From Candidatus Binatia bacterium (lineage in GTDB: Bacteria; Eisenbacteria; RBG-16-71-46; SZUA-252), in contig DASQJL010000053.1 in assembly GCA_035631035.1 (NCBI GenBank), positions 1-63,011 of the forward strand: 63,011 nt of DNA, read 5' to 3'. This document shows positions 3,586 through 28,144 of this stretch, in pieces. Each line of letters opens with the position of its first letter. Position 1 is the stretch's first letter. The translations under genes were made by a program, and so were the position numbers. The notes beneath the pieces were generated by a model, which saw only the letters and a program-made list of their open reading frames with translations, was not told the origin of the DNA and made no database searches.

Positions 3586-5136
3586 ATGATCCGTTCCCTG
3601 GGCCCCGAGGCGCCGGGATTGCCAAGGCTTGCGGTCGGCACCCTTGCAACACTCCTGGTGGCGAAGCTGCTGCTCCACCTGGCGGCAATCGGGCACTACG
3701 GGTATTTCCGGGACGAGCTTTACTACCTTGCGAGCACCGAGCATCTCGCCTGGGGTTACGTCGAACATCCTCCCTTCTCGATCGCGCTCCTGGCGCTCGT
3801 CCGGTCGGTCCTTGGAGATTCGCTGCCCGCACTGCGGCTGGTTCCCATCCTGTCCGGAGCCGCCGTCGTGCTCCTCACGGCGGTCCTGGCGCGGCGCCTC
3901 GGCGGCGGACGCTTCGCGCAGGGCATCGCGGCGCTCGCGGCCGTGATGGCGCCGGCTTTCCTGGGCACCCACCGCTACTACTCCATGAACGCACTCGATC
4001 TCCTCTTCTGGACGCTCGCGTCGCTCGCAACGCTCCAGGCGCTGGAGCGAGGGCGGGCGCGCGACTGGTCGGCGCTCGGCGTGCTGCTCGGGCTGGGCCT
4101 CCTGAACAAGGTCAGCATGGCGTGGTACGGCGGCGGACTCGCGATCGGACTTCTCGCCACGCGGCAGCGCCGGGCGCTGCTCGGGACCGGGCCCTGGCTC
4201 GCGGGCGCGATCGCGCTCGCCCTCTTCGCGCCGCACGTGGTGTGGCAGATCCAAAACGGCTGGCCCACCCTGGAATTCATCCGGAACGCGACCTCGCTCA
4301 AGATGGCCGCGACCACGCCGGGCGAGTTCCTCCGGGATCAGATCCTGACCCTGAATCCCGGCGCAGCACCGCTTTGGATCGCGGGGCTGATCTACGGCCT
4401 GGTCGCGCTGCGGGGCCGCCCGGGGCAGGTTCTTCCCTGGATCTACCTCTCGGTTCTGGTCCTTCTGCTCGCGCAGGGGCACAGCCGAGCGTCCTATCTC
4501 ACGGTCGCCTATCCGCCGCTGCTCGCCCTGGGCGGCGTGGCGGTCGAGCGGTGGACCGGCGCGACCCGGCGCTGGGTTCGCCCCGCGCTCGCGGCCCTCA
4601 TCCTCCTGACCGGGCTGGTCGCCGTGCCGCTGGCGCTTCCGGTGCTGCCCGTCCGGACGTTCGTGCGCTACCAGTCCGCCCTCGGCATGGCGCCCCGAAC
4701 CGAGGAACGGAACGCCATGGGCGCGCTGCCGCAGGATTACGCGGACATGTTCGGCTGGGAGGAGATGGCCGCCCTGGTCGCGAGAGCGTACGACCGGCTC
4801 ACGCCCGAGGAGCGCGGGCGCTGCCTCATCTTCGGCCAGAACTACGGCGAGGCCGGAGCGATCGACGTGATAGGGCGGAAGCTGGGCCTGCCGCCCGCCA
4901 TCAGCGGACATAACAGCTACTGGCTCTGGGGACCGCGGCGGCGCGAGTGGGAGGTCGTGATCATCATCGGCGGCGACCGTAAGGACAACGCCGCGTTCTT
5001 CGATCGGATCGAGATCGTGGGCCAGACGCGGTCGGAGTGGGCGATGCCCTACGAGCGGGGGCTGGACGTGTCCATCGCGCGCGGGCCGAAGATGTCCCTG
5101 GCCGAAGCGTGGCCGCGCGTGAAGCAGTACATCTGA
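3586..5136 (+). CDS. GT39/PMT-like integral membrane glycosyltransferase
   Basis: 516 residues with about ten hydrophobic segments. The first periplasmic loop carries YFRDELYYLAS and HLAWGYVEHPP (residues ~40-63). The Asp-Glu pair (43-44) is the catalytic signature of dolichyl-phosphate-mannose/ArnT-type GT-C enzymes, which transfer sugars from polyprenyl-phosphate donors. The C-terminal ~130 residues form a soluble domain (from about QSALGMAPRTEERN) that includes a GQNYGEAGAIDVIGRKLGLPP segment common in this subfamily. Acceptor and sugar cannot be told from sequence, and no polysaccharide cluster surrounds it. It starts 74 nt from the divergent phosphatase, so the promoters must share that short gap. 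Confidence 0.8.
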   Translation: MIRSLGPEAPGLPRLAVGTLATLLVAKLLLHLAAIGHYGYFRDELYYLASTEHLAWGYVEHPPFSIALLALVRSVLGDSLPALRLVPILSGAAVVLLTAVLARRLGGGRFAQGIAALAAVMAPAFLGTHRYYSMNALDLLFWTLASLATLQALERGRARDWSALGVLLGLGLLNKVSMAWYGGGLAIGLLATRQRRALLGTGPWLAGAIALALFAPHVVWQIQNGWPTLEFIRNATSLKMAATTPGEFLRDQILTLNPGAAPLWIAGLIYGLVALRGRPGQVLPWIYLSVLVLLLAQGHSRASYLTVAYPPLLALGGVAVERWTGATRRWVRPALAALILLTGLVAVPLALPVLPVRTFVRYQSALGMAPRTEERNAMGALPQDYADMFGWEEMAALVARAYDRLTPEERGRCLIFGQNYGEAGAIDVIGRKLGLPPAISGHNSYWLWGPRRREWEVVIIIGGDRKDNAAFFDRIEIVGQTRSEWAMPYERGLDVSIARGPKMSLAEAWPRVKQYI

Positions 5137-18059: not shown

Positions 18060-19613
18060 ATTCGGAAATTACGCATAGCCGTACTCGACATCGTCGCCCG
18101 GGCACCGACCCGGGCTCTCTACGCGCGCATCATGCACGCCAACCTGGCGAGCATCATGCCCCAGGTCATCGCGGTCTGGTGCGAGGAGGAAGGCCATGAG
18201 GTCCACCTCACCTGCTACACCGGATTCGAGGATCTCGATGAGCTGATCCCCGCGGACATCGACCTGGTGTTCATCAGCGCCTTCTCGCAGGCGGCGCAGT
18301 TCGCCTACGCCTTGAGCAACCAGCTCCGCGCGCGCGGCGCGGTCACCGCCCTCGGCGGGCCCCACGCGCGCTGCTATCCCGAGGACGCCCGGAAATACTT
18401 CGACTACGTCTTCGGGTTCACCGACAAGGAGACCGTCCGGTCGGCGCTCACCGACTGCGCGCCGCACCGGCCGCTGGGCGTCCTGCTCGACGCGAAGAAG
18501 CACCCGGCGACGCTCCCGGGCGTCCAGGAGCGGTGGAAGTTCATCGAGCCGACGCTCCGGAAGGCGCCCACCTTCAAGATCGTTCCGATGATCGGCAGCC
18601 TCGGCTGTCCCTACACCTGCCCCTTCTGCATCGATTCGACGGTGGAGTATCAGCCGCTCGGCTTCGAGCAGATCAAGCAGGACCTGCGCTTCCTCCGGAC
18701 CAAGATGAAGCACCCGCGCGTGGGGTGGCACGATCCCAACTTCGGGGTGCGGTTCAACGACTACATCAACACGATCGAAGAGGCGGTGCCTCCGGGCAGC
18801 ATCGATTTTCTCGCCGAGAGCAGCCTCTCGCTCCTGTCGGAGCCGCACCTGGTCCGCATGAAGCACAACAGCTTCAAGGCGATCCTGCCCGGGATCGAGT
18901 CCTGGTACTCGCTGGGGAACAAGGCCGGCACCGGCAGCAAGATCAGCGGCATGGACAAGGTGCAGCAGGTCTCGGCGCACGTGAATACGGTGCTCCGCTA
19001 CATCCCCTACGTGCAGACCAATTTCGTCCTCGGCCTCGACATGGACGAGGGGGATGAGCCGTTCGAGCTGACCAAGCGGTTCATCGACATGACGCCGGGC
19101 GCGTTTCCGGGCTACTCGCTGCTCACCGCGTTCGGAAAGGCGGCTCCGCTCAACCTCGAACTGCAGCGGGCCGGGCGCGTCTCCGGCTTTCCGTTCCACT
19201 TCCTGAACAACAACCACGCGATGAACGTCCAGCCGAAGAACTACCAGTGGCGGGAGTTCTACGACCGCGTGATCGACCTCACCAAGTACAGCTTCTCCTG
19301 GCGCTCGATCGCCAGGCGCTTCCGGGGCACGAAGGAGCCGATTCCCAAGTGGATGAACGTGGTGCGCGCCATCTCCACGGAGGGTTTCGGGCGGATCCGG
19401 TATCACTCGCGCGTGCGCGAGCTCCTGGACGCCGACCCGTCGTTCCTGCCCTATTTCACGGGACAGAGCGAGAAGCTGCCTCAATTCTACGTGGAACGGA
19501 TCAAGCGGGACCTGGGGCCGCTCTGGCCCCATCTCCCGGAGGGTTCCCTGTACCACGACCCGAACGCCTATCTGAAAACACACAACACGGCCCTTCCGAT
19601 CAGCGTGGGGTGA
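18060..19613 (+). CDS. B12-binding/radical SAM enzyme with probable ATT start
   Basis: About 517 residues from an ATT at 18060, or 493 from the first ATG at 18132. I favour ATT: AAGGGAGG lies just upstream, and the 24 extra residues (RKLRIAVLDIVARAPTRALY...) supply the first beta strand of the cobalamin-binding Rossmann fold, which continues in ASIMPQVIAVWCEEEGHEV and DIDLVFISAFSQ. The radical SAM domain has GSLGCPYTCPFCIDS (CxxxCxxC cluster ligands) and later TNFVLGLDMDEG. Such enzymes make a 5'-deoxyadenosyl radical, often for methylation or ring chemistry. The stop overlaps the next gene by one base (TGATG), so the PLP enzyme downstream is translationally coupled. Substrate unknown. Confidence 0.8.
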   Translation: MRKLRIAVLDIVARAPTRALYARIMHANLASIMPQVIAVWCEEEGHEVHLTCYTGFEDLDELIPADIDLVFISAFSQAAQFAYALSNQLRARGAVTALGGPHARCYPEDARKYFDYVFGFTDKETVRSALTDCAPHRPLGVLLDAKKHPATLPGVQERWKFIEPTLRKAPTFKIVPMIGSLGCPYTCPFCIDSTVEYQPLGFEQIKQDLRFLRTKMKHPRVGWHDPNFGVRFNDYINTIEEAVPPGSIDFLAESSLSLLSEPHLVRMKHNSFKAILPGIESWYSLGNKAGTGSKISGMDKVQQVSAHVNTVLRYIPYVQTNFVLGLDMDEGDEPFELTKRFIDMTPGAFPGYSLLTAFGKAAPLNLELQRAGRVSGFPFHFLNNNHAMNVQPKNYQWREFYDRVIDLTKYSFSWRSIARRFRGTKEPIPKWMNVVRAISTEGFGRIRYHSRVRELLDADPSFLPYFTGQSEKLPQFYVERIKRDLGPLWPHLPEGSLYHDPNAYLKTHNTALPISVG

Positions 19614-20779: not shown

Positions 20780-21472
20780 ATGAGCGAGCCTCCCACCGTC
20801 AGCGTCCGGGGCCTCCTCTTCCCGAAGCGTGGCGTCTCCGCCACCGAGCTCCTGCTCGCGGCCAACGTGACCGTCGCGGCGGTCCTCTTCGCGCTCCTGG
20901 GATCCAGCTACCCCTATGCCCTGCGCGCATGGGCGGGGGAGCGCTGGATCGACGTGCACGCGCACGGCGCCTACGGCTGGCTCCTGCCGACGCTCTTCCT
21001 CCACGCGGGACCGGGGCACCTCACGAGCAACCTGCTGGCGCTGGTCGCCGCGGCGGGAGCCGTGGAATTCCTGATGGGAGGAGGATGGGCGGTCGCCCTC
21101 TATTTCCTCACCGGGCTCGGCGCCGCCTGGATCTCCTACACGGGGCACGGCGCGCCGCCGCTCAGCATCGGCGCCTCCGGGGCGATCATGGGGCTGGTCG
21201 GCTGCACGGTGTCGTTCCTCATCCGCAGGCGGCGCTCGTTCAACTACGCGCAGCGGTGGAAAGTCTGGCGGGTCTACGTCCCCCTCTTCCTCCTCGTCTT
21301 CCTCCCCACGCTGGTCCACGCCGACGTTCACGCCCACATCGGCGGATTCGCTTGCGGCCTCGCTCTCGGCTTCTTCGTTCCGCCCCATCGGCGGGTGGCG
21401 CTGCTGGCCGCGGTGGATTCGCTGCGCGACGAGGCGGACACGGAGGCGGCTGCGGGCGAGGAGGAGTTGTAG
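20780..21472 (+). CDS. Rhomboid-family intramembrane serine protease
   Basis: 230 residues, six or more membrane helices. The catalytic serine is in SIGASGAIMGLVG and the partner histidine in ADVHAHIGGFACGLALGF. The helix-2 pair of small residues appears in LFLHAGPGHLTSNLLAL. It should cut single-pass membrane proteins within the bilayer. It follows the PLP enzyme gene by 42 nt and converges on the RiPP precursor gene, from which a shared hairpin separates it. Confidence 0.85.
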   Translation: MSEPPTVSVRGLLFPKRGVSATELLLAANVTVAAVLFALLGSSYPYALRAWAGERWIDVHAHGAYGWLLPTLFLHAGPGHLTSNLLALVAAAGAVEFLMGGGWAVALYFLTGLGAAWISYTGHGAPPLSIGASGAIMGLVGCTVSFLIRRRRSFNYAQRWKVWRVYVPLFLLVFLPTLVHADVHAHIGGFACGLALGFFVPPHRRVALLAAVDSLRDEADTEAAAGEEEL

Positions 21473-21487
21473 CGGCGGGAAACGTAC

Positions 21488-21523
21488 GAAGGGCGGTGCG
21501 ACCCGATGGCCGTACCGCCCTTC
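21488..21523. terminator. Bidirectional hairpin closing the RiPP operon and rhomboid gene
   Basis: GAAGGGCGGT pairs perfectly with ACCGCCCTTC, and the stem extends through a G-T pair and CG/CG to a 10-nt loop. On the minus strand the stem is followed by GTACGTTTCC. It lies between the rhomboid stop (21472) and the precursor stop (21551). Confidence 0.65.
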
Positions 21524-21550
21524 ACCTACTGCGGAAGGGAACCGCCCGCC

Positions 21551-21685
21551 TCAGTTCTCCTCGGAATCTTCCGGAGTCACCAGAACGGGGCACGTGCAGC
21601 GCGGCGAGGTGCTCGAAGAGCCGGTGCATCCCGGCTTCGGGCCGCTTTCCACTTCCACGACTTCCAGATCCAGGTTCTCATTCAT
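21551..21685 (-). CDS. Putative RiPP/lanthipeptide precursor peptide (44 aa)
   Basis: 44 residues from the ATG at 21685. An AGGAGG ribosome site lies six nt before the start. The N-terminal part is acidic and leader-like (LDLEVVEVESG, residues 5-15), which recalls the F-x-L-D motif of FxLD lanthipeptides but without the Phe. The core-like region GCTGSSSTSPRCTCP (19-33) holds Cys20, Cys30 and Cys32 and six of the peptide's ten Ser/Thr (Thr21, Ser23-25, Thr26, Ser27), plus Thr31. An acidic tail ends PEDSEEN. It lies 60 nt downstream of the MFS gene, in the same direction as the LanB and SpaB_C genes, and ends before a terminator. Assignment rests on composition and position, since no homologue search was possible. 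A chance small frame is unlikely given the ribosome site and context. Confidence 0.75.
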   Translation of the reverse strand: MNENLDLEVVEVESGPKPGCTGSSSTSPRCTCPVLVTPEDSEEN

Positions 21686-21745
21686 GGGGAGCCTCCTGCC
21701 TAGGTGGATTGGAAGAGCGGGTCGAATTACCCGCGGGCCCGAATC

Positions 21746-23056
21746 TTACTCCCGGCGCGAGAGGCCGTTCCAGCCTGTTTCCGCGGTTCGATCATCGGCG
21801 TCGGGCTCGGCGGCCAGGGCGCGTGTCAACATGACCCACCCGACGGCCCCGCCCGCCACGCAGAGGGCTCCCGCCACGAAGAAGACCTCGCGTATCCCCA
21901 CGCGGTCGGCCACGAGCCCGGCCCATCCCATCGAGACCATCATCACCGCCAGTAGCATCGTGTCGACCGCCGACTCGACGCGTCCCAGCAAGGAGTTGGG
22001 CGTGCGGCGCTGGAGAATGGCGTTGGTCGCCGACTGCATCGGCATGGCGAAGAGCCCGAGAAGGAGGAGGCAGGCGAGGACGAAGGCGAGATCGGGGGCT
22101 ACGCCCAGGAGCACCGTGGCCAGTCCGATGCCGGCGAGGCCACCGCCCACGAGGAGCGCGCTCGAACGCGACAGGCCGCTTCGCGCCGCCCACGCGCCGC
22201 CGAGCAGAAGTCCCGCGACCTGCGCCCCCCTGGCCAGCGCCACCGAGGCCGCGGGGACGTGGAGCGTATTCACCAGGAAGGGGACGAAGAGCACGGAAAC
22301 CGCGCCCGTCCCGAGCGAGGCGACGGCGAACGAAATCAGGACCGCGAGGAGCACGCGGGAGCCGAACACCAGGCCCAGCCCGTCGAGGAGCTCCCGCAGG
22401 ATGCCGCGGCCCTCTTCGATGGAGGGCGCATCCGCGCGCGTGGCGGCGATCCCGCCGGCGCGGATTCCCGCGACGCATCCGGCCGAGACGAGGAAGCTCG
22501 CCGCGTCCAGCACGAACGCCGGCCAGCCGCTTCCCGCGAGCGGCACCAGCACGCCGGCGAGCGCGGTCCCGATCAGGCCGCCCACGACCTGCGTCGTCTG
22601 AAGGAGGGAGTTGGCGCCGAGGAGCTCGGCGGGCGCCACCAGCCCAGGGGTGAGCGCGGCGCGCGCGGGATTGAAGAACACGCCGACGATCGCCTGGAGG
22701 AATCCGAGCAGGTAGAGGAGCCAGAGATCGCCGGGATCGCGGATCAGGAGAAATCCGAGCACCAGGGCCCCGCGCGCAAGGTCGGCGACGATCATCGTGC
22801 GGCGCCGGTCCCAGCGGTCGGCCATCACCCCGGCGAAGAGGCCGAGGCCCAGCTGCGGAACGGTGAGGACGACCGAGAGGGTCGCGATCATCGCGGCCGA
22901 TCCGGTCAGCCGGTTCACGGTCAGGACCAGCGCGAGCCAGGTGAGGCCGTCCCCGGCCTGGGACACTCCGTGGGCGATCCAGAGGCGGCGGAAATCGGGG
23001 CGGCTCAGCGCGGCGCGCGCGCCGCCTCCATCCTCCGGAGCGCCGCGCGGGCTCAT
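21746..23056 (-). CDS. MFS transporter, probable RiPP exporter
   Basis: 436 residues with twelve predicted membrane helices. MFS signatures include FAGVMADRWDRRRTMIVADL between helices 2 and 3 and PNSLLGRVESAVDT later. The N-terminal RPDFRRLWIAHGVSQAGDG start and helix 5 PARAALTPGLVAP are the MFS_3/enterobactin exporter (EntS-like) pattern. Its ATG overlaps the LanB stop (ATGA), so it belongs to the RiPP operon and most simply exports or confers immunity to the product. No LanT ABC peptidase-exporter is present in the operon, so leader removal must be done by another protease. Confidence 0.85.
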   Translation of the reverse strand: MSPRGAPEDGGGARAALSRPDFRRLWIAHGVSQAGDGLTWLALVLTVNRLTGSAAMIATLSVVLTVPQLGLGLFAGVMADRWDRRRTMIVADLARGALVLGFLLIRDPGDLWLLYLLGFLQAIVGVFFNPARAALTPGLVAPAELLGANSLLQTTQVVGGLIGTALAGVLVPLAGSGWPAFVLDAASFLVSAGCVAGIRAGGIAATRADAPSIEEGRGILRELLDGLGLVFGSRVLLAVLISFAVASLGTGAVSVLFVPFLVNTLHVPAASVALARGAQVAGLLLGGAWAARSGLSRSSALLVGGGLAGIGLATVLLGVAPDLAFVLACLLLLGLFAMPMQSATNAILQRRTPNSLLGRVESAVDTMLLAVMMVSMGWAGLVADRVGIREVFFVAGALCVAGGAVGWVMLTRALAAEPDADDRTAETGWNGLSRRE

Positions 23057-25593
23057 TCGGTGCCACTCGTCGCGGGATCCAGGTTGTCGATGTGCGCCAG
23101 GAATTCTGTGGCGTGCCGACCGCCGCTCGGCGTGCCGGCCATCCATAGGTCGGCGGGGCCGGGGAGCATCTCCGTGACGTGGACCCGCGCCGCCCGCGGA
23201 AACGAGCGGCGCATGAGATCCACGAACAGGGGCGCGTCCAGGTTGGCGTAGAACGGCTTGGGCTCGGCATCGGTGTGGACGAACAGATCGGCGGGCAGCC
23301 CGTGCGCTCGCCGCCAGCGCTGCGTCTCGAGGAAACGCTCCTCCGCCGTCGTTCCACCGGGCAGCTCGGACGCCTCGAACGCCCATCGCCTCCGGAACAG
23401 GATCACGTTTTCGAATCGGAAGCGCGGCCAGCGCCTCACTTCGGGGTGGTCGAATCCCGGCAAGAGGCCGAGCGGCTGCAGGTCTTGTCCCCCGACCATC
23501 GTGAGGAAGGAGACGAACCCCTCCGGATTGATGCCGCTCGAGATCACGGGGACGATCTCGATCCCGCGGGAGACGGAGCGCAGGTGGAAGCGGCCGGCGG
23601 CGGAGTCCCACGTCGCCGTGAGGTCGGCGAGCGGAATCGCCTCGCGCCCCTCGGTCGCGCGATCGCCCGGCAGCTCGATCTCCAGGGGAAAGAGCGGCGG
23701 GCGGAGCCCCGCGTTGGCGGTGCGCCCGCCGTGCATGAAGGTCACCTCGGCGAACGCGGACCCGGGGCGGGCTCGCCGCGCCCATCCCTCCTCCAGGACG
23801 CGCACGATCGGATTCTCCTCCCCCTCGACGGCCGGCCGGTGCAGGTGGGCCAGCCGCGCCACCGAAAGGCCCGCGCCGGGGAAGAGCGCGTTCAGACAGA
23901 CCCGCGCCGCGCGGTCCGCGGCCGACGCAGCCGAGGGTGCCGCCACCTGGAACAGCGCCGCGCAGGAGAATCGCGGCTCGGGGGCGTCGCCGGCGATCTC
24001 GATCCAGTCCGCTTCGGACAGGAGGACTTCGTCGGCGCCGGCCGCCTCGGCCCGCCTCGCCCGCTCGGCGAAGAAATCACGCGCGCGCTCGAACGCGCGC
24101 CCGGCGGCCTCGCGCCGCGGGGAATCGGATCGGCCGGACGCCGCGGAGACGAAGGCGGAGAGCGGCGCCTGCGCGGCGGGCTCGAACAGGCCATGATAGA
24201 AGTCGAGCACCGGGATCGGCGCGTCGGGCGGGTAGCGCTTCAGGAACCGGGCGGCGAAGGTCTCGCGCGTCAGCCGCTCCGGATAGATCGCGCCGTAGAA
24301 CCGCGCGTAGAGCGGGAGGAGTCGCTCGAGACCGGCGAGCAGCGCCGCGGGAAGCGATGCCTCGAATCCCGTCGCGGCATCGCAGCGGACGAGATCGTCG
24401 CCCGAGAGCGGACGGGCGTGGGGCAGGGCCTCGAGACGCGAGGCGACGCGGTCGATCCGTGCCGGGATCTCGGAGATCGGCGCCTGCGCCAGCGCGTCCA
24501 CCTCCGCCTCGATCGCGAGGAGCTCGCCGGCCCAGGGCGCGCCCGGGCAGCGCGCGGCGAGCGCGCGGAGCGGCCGCCGCTCGCTCCAGGGGATCTCCAC
24601 CTCGGCGATCAGCACCCCGCGCTCCACGAGCTTCGCGTAGAAGGGTGCGGTGTCCTGGCCGACGCGGGCGGAGACCGTCTCGATCACGCGCCCGGCGGGG
24701 ATGCGTCCGGTCGCCTCCTCCAGGAACATCCGCAGCACCGGGTGGTCCTTGATCTCGAGACGGACCTCGTCGTCGTTCTCGCGGCGCGGGCTGGCCGGCC
24801 GCCAGAGCGTCCAGCGATCGCCCTCGCGGCGCAGCGTCGGATTGGCGCGCGGGAAGATCGCCGCGGCCGCTCCGGGCGAAACCGCGAGGCACGCCGTGAT
24901 CGTCCGCGCCTCGCCGACGTGCAGGGCGAAGTCGAGCCGCGCGACCGCTCGCCCGTCCCGCACTCCAGCCGGCGCATCGCCCAGACGGCCGATGCCCGTG
25001 GCGCAGAAGAGGCCGTTGGGGCTGGTCTTCGCGGCGAAGCGCCCCAGGTAGGCGAGCACCTTGGAGGCGGCGTGGCGTTCGCGCTGGCCCCACGAGCCCG
25101 CGAGAGCGTCGGCCCGCCCCAAAAGCTCGCGCGCCGCGAGGCGAAGGCCCGCGCGAACGAAGGGATCGCGCGCCGCCGCGGCGATCGCCGCGCGTCCGCC
25201 CGCCTCGCACCTGGCATAGGCGGCCGCGTATTCGGCGCGGGCCCGCTCGACCGCGCACGCCGCGTCCCGATGCGCGCGCATCCTCGAGCCGAGCTCCGCG
25301 GAGAGAAGGGGCGCCGCCTTTGCGAGGTCCCCCTCGGACAGGGCCCGCCCGTGGTGGATCGCGCGGCGCAGTCGGAGCACGGCGCCCCGGGCCCCGGCCA
25401 GCTCCGGCGCGACCCCCGCCCCGGCCGCCTCGTAGAGGAGCGCCGAGAGGCGCTCCGCATCGGCCGCGCGCGATTCCAGTCCGTCCAGCAGCGCTCCGGC
25501 GGCGGCGCTCGCCTCCTCGCCGCGCAGCGGGGCCAGCGCCTCGAACGGCAGGCCGGCCACGCGGACGATCAGCAGGGGAGCCGTGTGCGTCAT
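23053..25593 (-). CDS. LanB-type lantibiotic dehydratase (glutamylation domain)
   Basis: 846 residues from the ATG at 25593. This is the Lant_dehydr_N family, which uses glutamyl-tRNA to activate Ser and Thr side chains of a precursor peptide. Family features include LLEAA-like helices at the start, YLGRFAAKTSPNGLF (182-196, the conserved R..K/R-TSP segment), the repeated barrel-like strands of the middle and the closing ENVILFRRRWAFEASELPGG, then GLPADLFVHTDAEPKPFYANLDAPLFVDLMRRS. It has no fused SpaB_C elimination domain; that lies in the adjacent gene. The gene is very GC-rich with many Ala and Arg. It starts 5 nt after the SpaB_C stop. A PEARL (peptide-aminoacyl-tRNA ligase) role is an alternative, but PEARLs normally lack a SpaB_C partner. 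Confidence 0.88.
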   Translation of the reverse strand: MTHTAPLLIVRVAGLPFEALAPLRGEEASAAAGALLDGLESRAADAERLSALLYEAAGAGVAPELAGARGAVLRLRRAIHHGRALSEGDLAKAAPLLSAELGSRMRAHRDAACAVERARAEYAAAYARCEAGGRAAIAAAARDPFVRAGLRLAARELLGRADALAGSWGQRERHAASKVLAYLGRFAAKTSPNGLFCATGIGRLGDAPAGVRDGRAVARLDFALHVGEARTITACLAVSPGAAAAIFPRANPTLRREGDRWTLWRPASPRRENDDEVRLEIKDHPVLRMFLEEATGRIPAGRVIETVSARVGQDTAPFYAKLVERGVLIAEVEIPWSERRPLRALAARCPGAPWAGELLAIEAEVDALAQAPISEIPARIDRVASRLEALPHARPLSGDDLVRCDAATGFEASLPAALLAGLERLLPLYARFYGAIYPERLTRETFAARFLKRYPPDAPIPVLDFYHGLFEPAAQAPLSAFVSAASGRSDSPRREAAGRAFERARDFFAERARRAEAAGADEVLLSEADWIEIAGDAPEPRFSCAALFQVAAPSAASAADRAARVCLNALFPGAGLSVARLAHLHRPAVEGEENPIVRVLEEGWARRARPGSAFAEVTFMHGGRTANAGLRPPLFPLEIELPGDRATEGREAIPLADLTATWDSAAGRFHLRSVSRGIEIVPVISSGINPEGFVSFLTMVGGQDLQPLGLLPGFDHPEVRRWPRFRFENVILFRRRWAFEASELPGGTTAEERFLETQRWRRAHGLPADLFVHTDAEPKPFYANLDAPLFVDLMRRSFPRAARVHVTEMLPGPADLWMAGTPSGGRHATEFLAHIDNLDPATSGTE

Positions 25594-25598
25594 CGCGG

Positions 25599-26480
25599 TC
25601 AGGCGGCGGTCTTGGCGCGCTCCTCGAGCATGCGGGCCATGAAGAAGCGGAGGATCGCCTCGGGGACCGCCTCCACGCCGAGGCGGTTCGTCATCATGTG
25701 CGTGTAGGACCAGAGGAGATGGACCAGGCTTTGCCGGATGCGGCCCGCGCGATGCTCGCGCAGGATCGACTCCACGATCGGTCGCGCCTGCTCGAGGAAC
25801 CGGGCCGCGACGGCGGCGGCTTCGGCTCCGCCATAGAATCGCGCGGGGTCCTCGGCCGCATCGCCGAAGAAGAGCCTCTCCAATCCGGGGCGGAGCGCCT
25901 GGAAGCGGGTCTCCAGCGCCGACAGCTCCTCCGCCTCCCACGTCTTCAGCTCGAGCGCCCAGCCGTAGCCGTACTTGTAGAAGTCGATGCGCTCCCGCGC
26001 CGAGAGCTCCGCGAGATCCATGAAGCGGTCGACCAGCGCCATCGCCAGCTCGCGGCGCGATTTCTTCAGGAGGCCGGCGCGGTCGATCCGCACGAGATCG
26101 AGACAGGCGAGCGAGTCGACGTGGAAGAGCTTCTCGGCGAGCGCCATGCCGGTCTCTCCACCGTAGCGATCGAGCTCGCGGTCGTAGCGCTGGAACTCGT
26201 GGCGCTCGATCGTGCCGTCCGACTCGAGCTCGCGCACCCGGCGCTCGACGTCCGCGCGCAGGTCCCCCTCGACCCACGAGCGGCGCCCCAGGACGCGGAA
26301 CCGAAGCTGCCACTCCGGCTCGGAGAAGCGGACGAAGAAGAGGGAATCGAGGTCGGGGTGGTTCTGGATGCTGGCGGCTAGGGGTGCCACGAAGGTCTCG
26401 AGGATCGACTCGTGCCGCTCGCGAGGAACGATGAGGAGGCTGTAGAGACAGCCCTGGTCGGATGCGGGGGGAGGTTCCAT
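25599..26480 (-). CDS. SpaB_C/thiopeptide-type bacteriocin biosynthesis protein
   Basis: 293 residues matching the elimination domain of split LanB enzymes (SpaB_C family). Signatures: LYSLLIVP near the start, FFVRFSEPEWQLRFRVLG (48-65, the usual 'fRY-HLRLR'-type strand pair), YDRELDRYGG (99-108), and late YTHMMTNRLG, where His and Asn/Arg are conserved. In class I lanthipeptides this domain removes glutamate from activated Ser/Thr to form dehydroamino acids. In thiopeptides, relatives form the pyridine ring. No YcaO or cyclodehydratase is nearby, so I favour the elimination role. The LanB gene follows with a 5-nt gap. Confidence 0.88.
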   Translation of the reverse strand: MEPPPASDQGCLYSLLIVPRERHESILETFVAPLAASIQNHPDLDSLFFVRFSEPEWQLRFRVLGRRSWVEGDLRADVERRVRELESDGTIERHEFQRYDRELDRYGGETGMALAEKLFHVDSLACLDLVRIDRAGLLKKSRRELAMALVDRFMDLAELSARERIDFYKYGYGWALELKTWEAEELSALETRFQALRPGLERLFFGDAAEDPARFYGGAEAAAVAARFLEQARPIVESILREHRAGRIRQSLVHLLWSYTHMMTNRLGVEAVPEAILRFFMARMLEERAKTAA

Positions 26481-26523: not shown

Positions 26524-27333
26524 CTAGGGCGATTTCCGCTCCTGCGCCTCCCGATTCGCCTGCGCGGCGCGCGTCCAGGTGACGACGTCCTCCGGACGCA
26601 TCCGACCCTCCGGAGGGAGCCGCGCGTCGCGATATCCGCGCGCGAGAGCCTCGAGGTATTGCTCGCGGGACAGGAGCGTTCCCCGGCAGACCCGGTCCTC
26701 CTCCCCCGATCCGCGGCGCGCCCGCTCCAGGTCGGAGAGGAGGTATTCCCAGACCCACGAAGGCACCCGGTCTCGAGCGGAGGGGAATGCGAAGAGGAAG
26801 AGCGTGAGGTGGGCCAGCAGCACCAGCGGGTAGTCGCGGAAGCGCTGCAGGAGCCGCTGCCAGTCGAGGTCGGCGCCGCGCGCGAGGATCAGATGCGCCA
26901 CGTCCGCGCCGTCGTAGCGGTCGCGCTCCATCAGAAACGCCTTCGACCAGATCATCTCCTCGGCGGGGGAGATCTTCACGCGGTGTCCCAGCACCTCGTC
27001 TTCCGACGCGTGCTCGAACCACGCCTCGTCGACCATCGCCACGCCGTTTCCGGAGCTGAAGATGACGTCCACGTAAGCCTTCCCCTTGTAAATCTTGCCC
27101 AGCCAATGGGGGAAGGTCATCTCGGTCCGGTACCCCAGCTCCGCGAAGTGCTGCAGCACCCGCTCCGCGTCGGCCGGGAGAACGAAGATGTCGAGGTCGC
27201 GCGTGGGGCGGCCCGTTCCGGTATGGCGCTTCAGGGCGTACCCTCCTCCGATGAGGAACGGGATCTGCGATTCGCACATCGAGTTGAGGACCGCCGCATA
27301 GAAGGAGACGGATTTCGGGCGCGTTTTCTGCAT
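26524..27333 (-). CDS. Nucleotidyltransferase-fold protein, first gene of the RiPP operon
   Basis: 269 residues from the ATG at 27333. The nucleotidyltransferase core is FLIGGGYALKRH (27-38), then RPTRDLDIFVLP (42-53) with Asp47 and Asp49, and a third acidic strand KAYVDVIFSSG. This is the MNT/AbiEii-like minimal fold, which transfers NMPs to proteins, RNA or small molecules. The second half is helical and charged and unrecognised. It ends 43 nt before the SpaB_C gene on the same strand, so it is probably co-transcribed with it. Possible roles include modifying the peptide, its leader or tRNA, or an unrelated toxin-like function. Family is clear; function is not. Confidence 0.7.
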   Translation of the reverse strand: MQKTRPKSVSFYAAVLNSMCESQIPFLIGGGYALKRHTGTGRPTRDLDIFVLPADAERVLQHFAELGYRTEMTFPHWLGKIYKGKAYVDVIFSSGNGVAMVDEAWFEHASEDEVLGHRVKISPAEEMIWSKAFLMERDRYDGADVAHLILARGADLDWQRLLQRFRDYPLVLLAHLTLFLFAFPSARDRVPSWVWEYLLSDLERARRGSGEEDRVCRGTLLSREQYLEALARGYRDARLPPEGRMRPEDVVTWTRAAQANREAQERKSP

Positions 27334-27376
27334 GGCTCGGAGGACGGCTCCAGGGTGGGGAAGCGAGGAGGATCCG

Positions 27377-28144
27377 ATGACTGACGGCCGAGAACCGGCG
27401 CGGCTGCGAATCGCGGCGGTGGCGGACATCCACTATCCACATTCCAGTGACGCATCCACCGTGCCAGCGCTGGCGAGAGCGGTCGAGCAGGCTGACGTAC
27501 TGCTGATCTGCGGCGACCTGACGCACCACGGGCTGGTCGACGAAGCGGTCGAGCTGGCGAAGCTCCTGTCCCGAATCCAGATTCCGATCCTGGCGGTCCT
27601 CGGGAACCACGACTTCCATTCCGACCAGCAGGAGGAGATCAAGCGGGCGCTCAAGGATTCTCCCGTCCAGGTCCTGGACGGGGACGCCGTGGAGATTCGC
27701 GGCGTGGGCTTCGCCGGGGTGAAGGGGTTCGCATCCGGGTTCGGCCGCCGGGTGCTCGAGCCCTGGGGCGAGCCGGTGGTCAAGCAGTTCGTCCGCGAGG
27801 CGGTCGAGGAGTCGCTGAAGCTGGGCGCCGCCCTCGCCCAGCTCCGGGCCGAGACGCGCGTGGCCCTCCTCCACTACGCTCCCATCGTCGAGACGGTGGA
27901 GGGAGAGCCCGCGGAGATCCATCCCTTCCTGGGCAGCAGCCGGCTCGAGGAGCCGCTCAACCGCATGCAGGTGTCGGCCGTATTCCACGGGCACGCCCAC
28001 CATGGACGGCCCGAGGGGCGGACCAGCGCCGGCATCCCCGTCTACAACGTGTCGCTTCCCCTGCTCCGGCGCACGCAGCCGGGGGAGTCGCCGGTCCGCA
28101 TCGTCACGATCGAGATAGGCGCCGCTTCACCATCTTCAGGGTGA
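27377..28144 (+). CDS. Calcineurin-like metallophosphoesterase
   Basis: 255 residues from the ATG at 27377 with AGGAGG six nt upstream. The metal-binding motifs are complete: VADIHYPH, LLICGDLTHHG, LAVLGNHDFHS, ALLHYAPI and AVFHGHAHHG. There is no signal peptide, so it acts in the cytoplasm, probably on a phosphodiester. Only 43 bp separate its start from the divergent nucleotidyltransferase start, so the two promoters overlap and may be regulated together. A nucleotidyltransferase next to a phosphodiesterase could add and remove a nucleotide, but this pairing is inference. Its 3' end overlaps the DUF3618-like gene by 41 nt. Confidence 0.85.
   Translation: MTDGREPARLRIAAVADIHYPHSSDASTVPALARAVEQADVLLICGDLTHHGLVDEAVELAKLLSRIQIPILAVLGNHDFHSDQQEEIKRALKDSPVQVLDGDAVEIRGVGFAGVKGFASGFGRRVLEPWGEPVVKQFVREAVEESLKLGAALAQLRAETRVALLHYAPIVETVEGEPAEIHPFLGSSRLEEPLNRMQVSAVFHGHAHHGRPEGRTSAGIPVYNVSLPLLRRTQPGESPVRIVTIEIGAASPSSG

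What the first reader, a model, noticed from the sequence alone, without database searches (positions are those of the whole stretch)
21551..21685. Unannotated 44-residue RiPP precursor at the end of a LanB operon
A 44-codon frame with a strong AGGAGG site sits 60 nt downstream of the MFS gene, on the same strand as LanB and SpaB_C. It has a leader-like acidic half (LDLEVVEVESG) and a core-like GCTGSSSTSPRCTCP holding all three cysteines and most Ser/Thr. Its length, composition and context fit a lanthipeptide-type precursor. The tail PEDSEEN is an unusual acidic follower after the last Cys. FxLD-type leaders look similar, but the Phe is missing, so this may be a new precursor family.
Basis: partly seen in the sequence, partly recalled or inferred. 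Interest (0 to 1): 0.9.

Follow-up and report, generated by a model that had tools for sequence, protein, structure and literature searches.

The report
Lone precursor for a split LanB
A tiny unannotated gene at the end of an enzyme operon in an uncultured bacterium (Candidatus Eisenbacteria) very probably encodes the peptide that those enzymes dehydrate, but the usual ring-closing enzyme is missing from the locus, so the shape of the product is open.

Summary
The frame is real: 44 codons at 21685-21551 (-), AGGAGG six bases before the ATG, 60 nt after the MFS stop, and a strong hairpin just after it. It ends a minus-strand operon: PF14907 nucleotidyltransferase, stand-alone glutamate-elimination protein (PF14028), stand-alone glutamylation protein (PF04738; AlphaFold model matches only LanB structures), MFS exporter, precursor. 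The elimination protein keeps NisB's arginines and His961. The leader (NLDLEVVEVES) resembles the class I FxLD/FNLDL box with Leu for Phe; a precursor beside LanB and LanC in Amycolatopsis anabasis (EDLDLDLEVVVVE) shows the same change. Best reading: the substrate of this split LanB, giving a dehydrated peptide, perhaps with thioether rings. "Lanthipeptide" is not shown: the locus has no LanC. The genome's only LanC is fused to a HopA1 lyase beside an APH kinase on another contig. YcaO is absent, so it is not a thiopeptide. Codon bias is weak and no peptide homologue exists, so translation is inferred. A new variant of a known kind, moderately interesting.

The parts
21551..21685 (-). 44-aa candidate RiPP precursor; leader-like residues 1-18, Cys/Ser/Thr-rich core 19-33, C-terminal tail 34-44
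   Evidence: ORF and ribosome site; only leader-box-positive small frame in the window
21692..21697 (-). AGGAGG ribosome-binding site, 6 nt before the ATG; the strongest in the operon
   Evidence: starts at 26480, 25593 and 23056 lack such a site
21481..21526 (-). hairpin GAAGGGCGGT...ACCGCCCTTC between the convergent rhomboid gene (+) and the precursor (-); probable shared terminator
   Evidence: fold -45.2 kcal/mol for 21470-21550, z -3.6; no classical T-run terminator detected
21746..23056 (-). MFS exporter (436 aa), start overlaps the LanB stop
   Evidence: PF07690 E 7e-29, PF05977 E 3e-19
23053..25593 (-). stand-alone glutamylation half of LanB (846 aa)
   Evidence: PF04738 E 4.7e-60; AlphaFold model pLDDT 75.5; Foldseek best hits MibB, TbtB, MadB, NisB, GodF
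25599..26480 (-). stand-alone glutamate-elimination half (293 aa) with R60, R62, R105 and H261 kept
   Evidence: PF14028 E 1.2e-38, TIGR03891 E 1.9e-35; alignment to NisB; residue positions
26524..27429 (-). nucleotidyltransferase (PF14907), first gene of the operon; start possibly at 27333
   Evidence: PF14907 E 4.8e-8, just over cut-off; start candidates

Best explanation
The 44-residue frame is the precursor of a LanB-dependent RiPP. Residues 2-13 (NENLDLEVVEVE) act as a short leader that docks on the glutamylation protein. That protein uses Glu-tRNA to glutamylate Ser/Thr of the core (Thr21, Ser23-25, Thr26, Ser27, Thr31, perhaps Thr37 and Ser41). The separate SpaB_C protein then eliminates glutamate to give Dha/Dhb, and the MFS protein exports the product. 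Cys30 and Cys32 may close thioether rings onto nearby dehydro residues, either unaided or through a cyclase encoded elsewhere. The nucleotidyltransferase may add a further decoration. Shown by sequence: gene order, domain identities, kept elimination residues, leader resemblance. Inferred: co-transcription, translation, binding, dehydration, any ring, export and activity.
For: Complete LanB in two proteins (PF04738 and PF14028) with the equivalents of NisB's elimination-domain arginines and His961 kept. The glutamylation protein's model matches only LanB-type structures. The frame is the last gene before a strong hairpin and has the best ribosome site among the operon starts inspected, as expected for a substrate made in excess. 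It is the only leader-box-positive small frame of 424 in the window. In 80 fetched LanB-type loci the box-plus-Cys pattern occurs in 25 of 3863 small frames within 2.5 kb of LanB and 5 of 7121 further away. Closest leader: Amycolatopsis anabasis EDLDLDLEVVVVE, 94 bases before LanB, with a LanC-like frame downstream.
Against: No homologue of the peptide in the genome, the plasmids or the LanB loci and no family hit. Codon bias is weak. The box was defined to allow Leu after the finding was read; Leu-only boxes alone are not enriched near LanB (about 2 near, 4 far). No protease, LanC or ABC exporter in the operon. No relative to test conservation.
Confidence: 0.78

Rival explanations
1. True class I lanthipeptide: the dehydrated peptide is cyclised by a LanC acting in trans, such as the LanC domain on contig C111, to give lanthionine rings, for example Ser27-Cys30.
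For: Three Cys among dehydratable residues; the genome does encode a LanC-like domain. It shows WCHG and CHG motifs in the sequence; that these are the zinc ligands is from general knowledge of LanC. Leader of class I type.
Against: That LanC is fused to a HopA1 lyase and sits beside an APH kinase, the class V dehydration pair (PMC9486802), so it probably has its own pathway. Class I clusters are defined by LanB plus LanC together (PMC7268733).
Confidence: 0.3
2. A LanB-dehydrated peptide that stays linear or closes rings without an enzyme; a LanC-free type of dehydrated RiPP. (This and the first rival are sub-cases of the best explanation.)
For: No LanC in the operon or the 63-kb window; YcaO absent from the 97%-complete genome. 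Ring formation can occur without LanC at basic pH (PMC9889658).
Against: Three Cys would be unusual in a peptide meant to stay linear; a missing cyclase gene in a 135-contig assembly cannot be excluded.
Confidence: 0.4
3. The frame is not a gene; the split LanB acts on a peptide encoded elsewhere.
For: Weak codon bias, no conservation evidence; some precursors are known to lie away from their enzymes (PMC7268733).
Against: Ideal ribosome site, operon position, terminator-like hairpin after it, leader and core composition together.
Confidence: 0.17
4. Thiopeptide, goadsporin-type or other azole-containing peptide, since split LanB proteins are typical there.
For: Split halves and a TbtB/GodF-like glutamylation protein.
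Against: No YcaO anywhere in the genome; no pyridine synthase in the operon.
Confidence: 0.03

Closest known systems
Class I lanthipeptides with split LanB (pinensin, SapT)
   Same: Glutamylation and elimination on separate proteins; short Cys/Ser/Thr-rich precursor in the cluster (PMC7268733, PMC9011353).
   Different: SapT has its own LanC (SptC), and pinensin's LanC is discussed in PMC7268733. SapT's lyase lacks the His base, while this one keeps it (H261). Here an MFS protein and a nucleotidyltransferase are present and the elimination gene precedes the glutamylation gene.
FxLD / FDLD class I precursors (TIGR04363, NF038155)
   Same: Acidic leader box D-L-[DE]-V followed by a Cys/Ser/Thr core.
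   Different: No hit to either model; Leu instead of Phe; very short leader; acidic tail after the last Cys.
Unannotated class I precursor candidate of Amycolatopsis anabasis (L082:7386-7538) beside LanB and a LanC-like frame
   Same: DLDLEVV-VE leader with Leu at the Phe position.
   Different: Fused LanB, LanC-like frame downstream, different core, no acidic tail.
Thiopeptide split LanB (TbtB) and goadsporin GodF
   Same: Stand-alone glutamylation protein of similar length; structural match.
   Different: No YcaO in the genome.
PEARLs (peptide aminoacyl-tRNA ligases)
   Same: LanB-like glutamylation-type domain.
   Different: A separate, apparently intact elimination protein is present here; PEARLs lack it (general knowledge).

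Membership tests
Class I lanthipeptide | LanB glutamylation domain | tested here: met
   PF04738 E 4.7e-60; fold match
Class I lanthipeptide | LanB elimination domain with catalytic residues | tested here: met
   PF14028 E 1.2e-38; R60/R62/R105/H261 kept
Class I lanthipeptide | LanC cyclase in the cluster | tested here: not met
   Whole-genome PF05147 search: one hit, on contig C111, fused to HopA1
Class I lanthipeptide | Precursor with FxLD-type leader | tested here: inconclusive
   LDLEV with Leu for Phe; no NCBIfam hit; same substitution in L082
Class I lanthipeptide | Lanthionine in the product | not testable with these tools
   needs mass spectrometry
FxLD family lanthipeptide (TIGR04363) | match to the model | tested here: not met
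   0 families up to E 10
Thiopeptide / azole RiPP | YcaO cyclodehydratase | tested here: not met
   PF02624 absent from genome
PEARL-type small LanB | no elimination domain partner | tested here: not met
   intact PF14028 protein directly upstream

The most novel reading that the evidence does not exclude
A minimal LanB-only RiPP pathway in a candidate phylum: split dehydratase, MFS export and a nucleotidyltransferase make a Dha/Dhb-rich, Cys-containing peptide without LanC or YcaO, possibly with self-closed rings or a new decoration added by the nucleotidyltransferase.
Probability: 0.3. Interest if true: 0.6.

Novelty: new variant of a known kind. Interest (0 to 1): 0.42.

Why it matters
No paper in the searched library mentions both Eisenbacteria and lanthipeptides. 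A compact five-gene pathway with separate dehydratase halves, an atypical leader and no cyclase could be rebuilt easily in E. coli. It would show whether LanB alone can support a natural product and whether a cyclase on another contig serves two pathways.

Tried and rejected
Thiopeptide/goadsporin reading: no YcaO. PEARL reading: intact elimination protein present. SapT-type lyase: His base kept here, missing there. In the BLAST survey of those loci nearly all LanBs are fused; a few are separate, and none has related MFS, nucleotidyltransferase and precursor genes as here. IMG/VR: none. Plasmids: only distant actinobacterial LanBs. Peptide homologues: none convincing. Leader statistics: the Leu-only form of the box is not enriched near LanB, so the leader alone is suggestive, not decisive.

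Full report
Observation. AGGAGG lies 6 nt before the ATG, and the ATG is 60 nt after the MFS stop. Just downstream, between this frame and the convergent rhomboid gene, the RNA folds into a hairpin (-45.2 kcal/mol, z -3.6). No T-run terminator was called.

Operon. On the same strand, in order of transcription: a PF14907 nucleotidyltransferase (27429 or 27333 to 26524), a stand-alone elimination protein (26480-25599, PF14028), a stand-alone glutamylation protein (25593-23053, PF04738), an MFS exporter (23056-21746) overlapping the LanB stop, then the peptide. The starts of the elimination, glutamylation and MFS genes have no strong ribosome site, whereas the peptide has a perfect one, as expected for a substrate needed in excess (inference). 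That the five genes form one transcript is inferred from strand and spacing.

Enzymes. The elimination protein aligns to NisB, MibB and MadB. It keeps the LRFR pair (R60, R62), the Arg of RYGG (R105) and His261, the equivalent of NisB His961, which is essential (PMC4341554). It therefore differs from the SapT lyase, which lacks this His (PMC9011353). The glutamylation protein was modelled with 19 LanB homologues (mean pLDDT 75.5, pTM 0.77; the first ~90 residues are poorly predicted). Its only significant Foldseek matches are LanB-type enzymes: MibB, TbtB, MadB, NisB and GodF.

Genome context. The window belongs to a 97%-complete genome (G000) whose class holds 47 genomes in this collection. 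One of their LanB contigs (G032:C231, L102) has the same length and match coordinates as a named Candidatus Eisenbacteria record (L025), so I take the phylum to be Ca. Eisenbacteria. LanB glutamylation domains occur in 6 of the 47. The others found are fused or fragmentary, and none is close to this one. YcaO is absent. The only LanC-like domain is on contig C111, fused to a HopA1 lyase and adjacent to an APH kinase, the pair that dehydrates class V lanthipeptides (PMC9486802).

Precursor test. In the 80 loci fetched around LanB-like proteins, small frames with a box [FL][DNQE][LIV][DEQN][LIVT] followed by at least 2 Cys and 4 Ser/Thr are found in 25 of 3863 within 2.5 kb of LanB and 5 of 7121 elsewhere. 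Nearly all near hits look like precursors; two are antisense readings, and one far hit looks like a real precursor. In the window only 1 of 424 small frames passes: this one. Caveats: the box was widened to Leu after reading the finding, and the Leu-only form is not enriched by itself. The best leader match, EDLDLDLEVVVVE in Amycolatopsis anabasis, lies 94 bases before a LanB, with a LanC-like frame downstream recognised by eye. Codon bias of the peptide is weak, and it has no homologue or family match.

Mechanism. Most likely the leader docks on the glutamylation protein, Ser/Thr of the core are glutamylated with Glu-tRNA and eliminated to Dha/Dhb by the partner protein, and the MFS protein exports the product. 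Steps shown: gene content, domain identity, kept elimination residues. Steps inferred: everything about translation and chemistry. Rings are uncertain: Cys30 and Cys32 follow dehydratable residues, Cys20 has only Ser14 before it. Ring closure can happen without LanC at basic pH (PMC9889658). The nucleotidyltransferase has a possible parallel in the lasso peptide pseudomycoidin, where PsmN, annotated as a nucleotidyltransferase, is needed for hexose addition to phosphorylated Ser (PMC9266682); homology between the two was not tested.

Comparison and verdict. It works like a class I (split LanB) pathway but fails the LanC criterion in the locus, so it should be called a LanB-dependent RiPP candidate, not a lanthipeptide.

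Noticed in passing
L096:7492-10969 (G000:C111 about 27.5-31.0 kb): A second lanthipeptide-type locus in the same genome: a 797-aa protein fusing a HopA1 lyase to a LanC domain, directly after an APH-type kinase; a class V-like pair with a LanC cyclase attached. No precursor was identified.
   Followed up: partly
L097:532-816 (genome G005, same family): A 94-aa Cys-rich frame beside a fused LanB with a leader like LxLxKx5L (KLRLRKNTLRDLT), a type described for Bacteroidetes class I precursors (PMC7268733).
   Followed up: no
L008/L100 (genome G034:C56, match 3928-4284): A stand-alone elimination-domain-like frame (422 aa open frame) in a genome without any Lant_dehydr_N match.
   Followed up: no
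window 26524-27429 (-): A PF14907 nucleotidyltransferase heads this LanB operon; no relative of it was found by BLAST in the fetched LanB loci.
   Followed up: partly
window 18132-19613 (+): A B12-binding, radical SAM-type protein lies near the operon on the opposite strand beyond the hairpin; probably unrelated.
   Followed up: no
L065:6539-6685: A precursor-like frame beside LanB in Streptomyces atroolivaceus with a DFDLDLDLEVV leader, weakly matching NCBIfam TIGR04451 and NF038155.
   Followed up: partly
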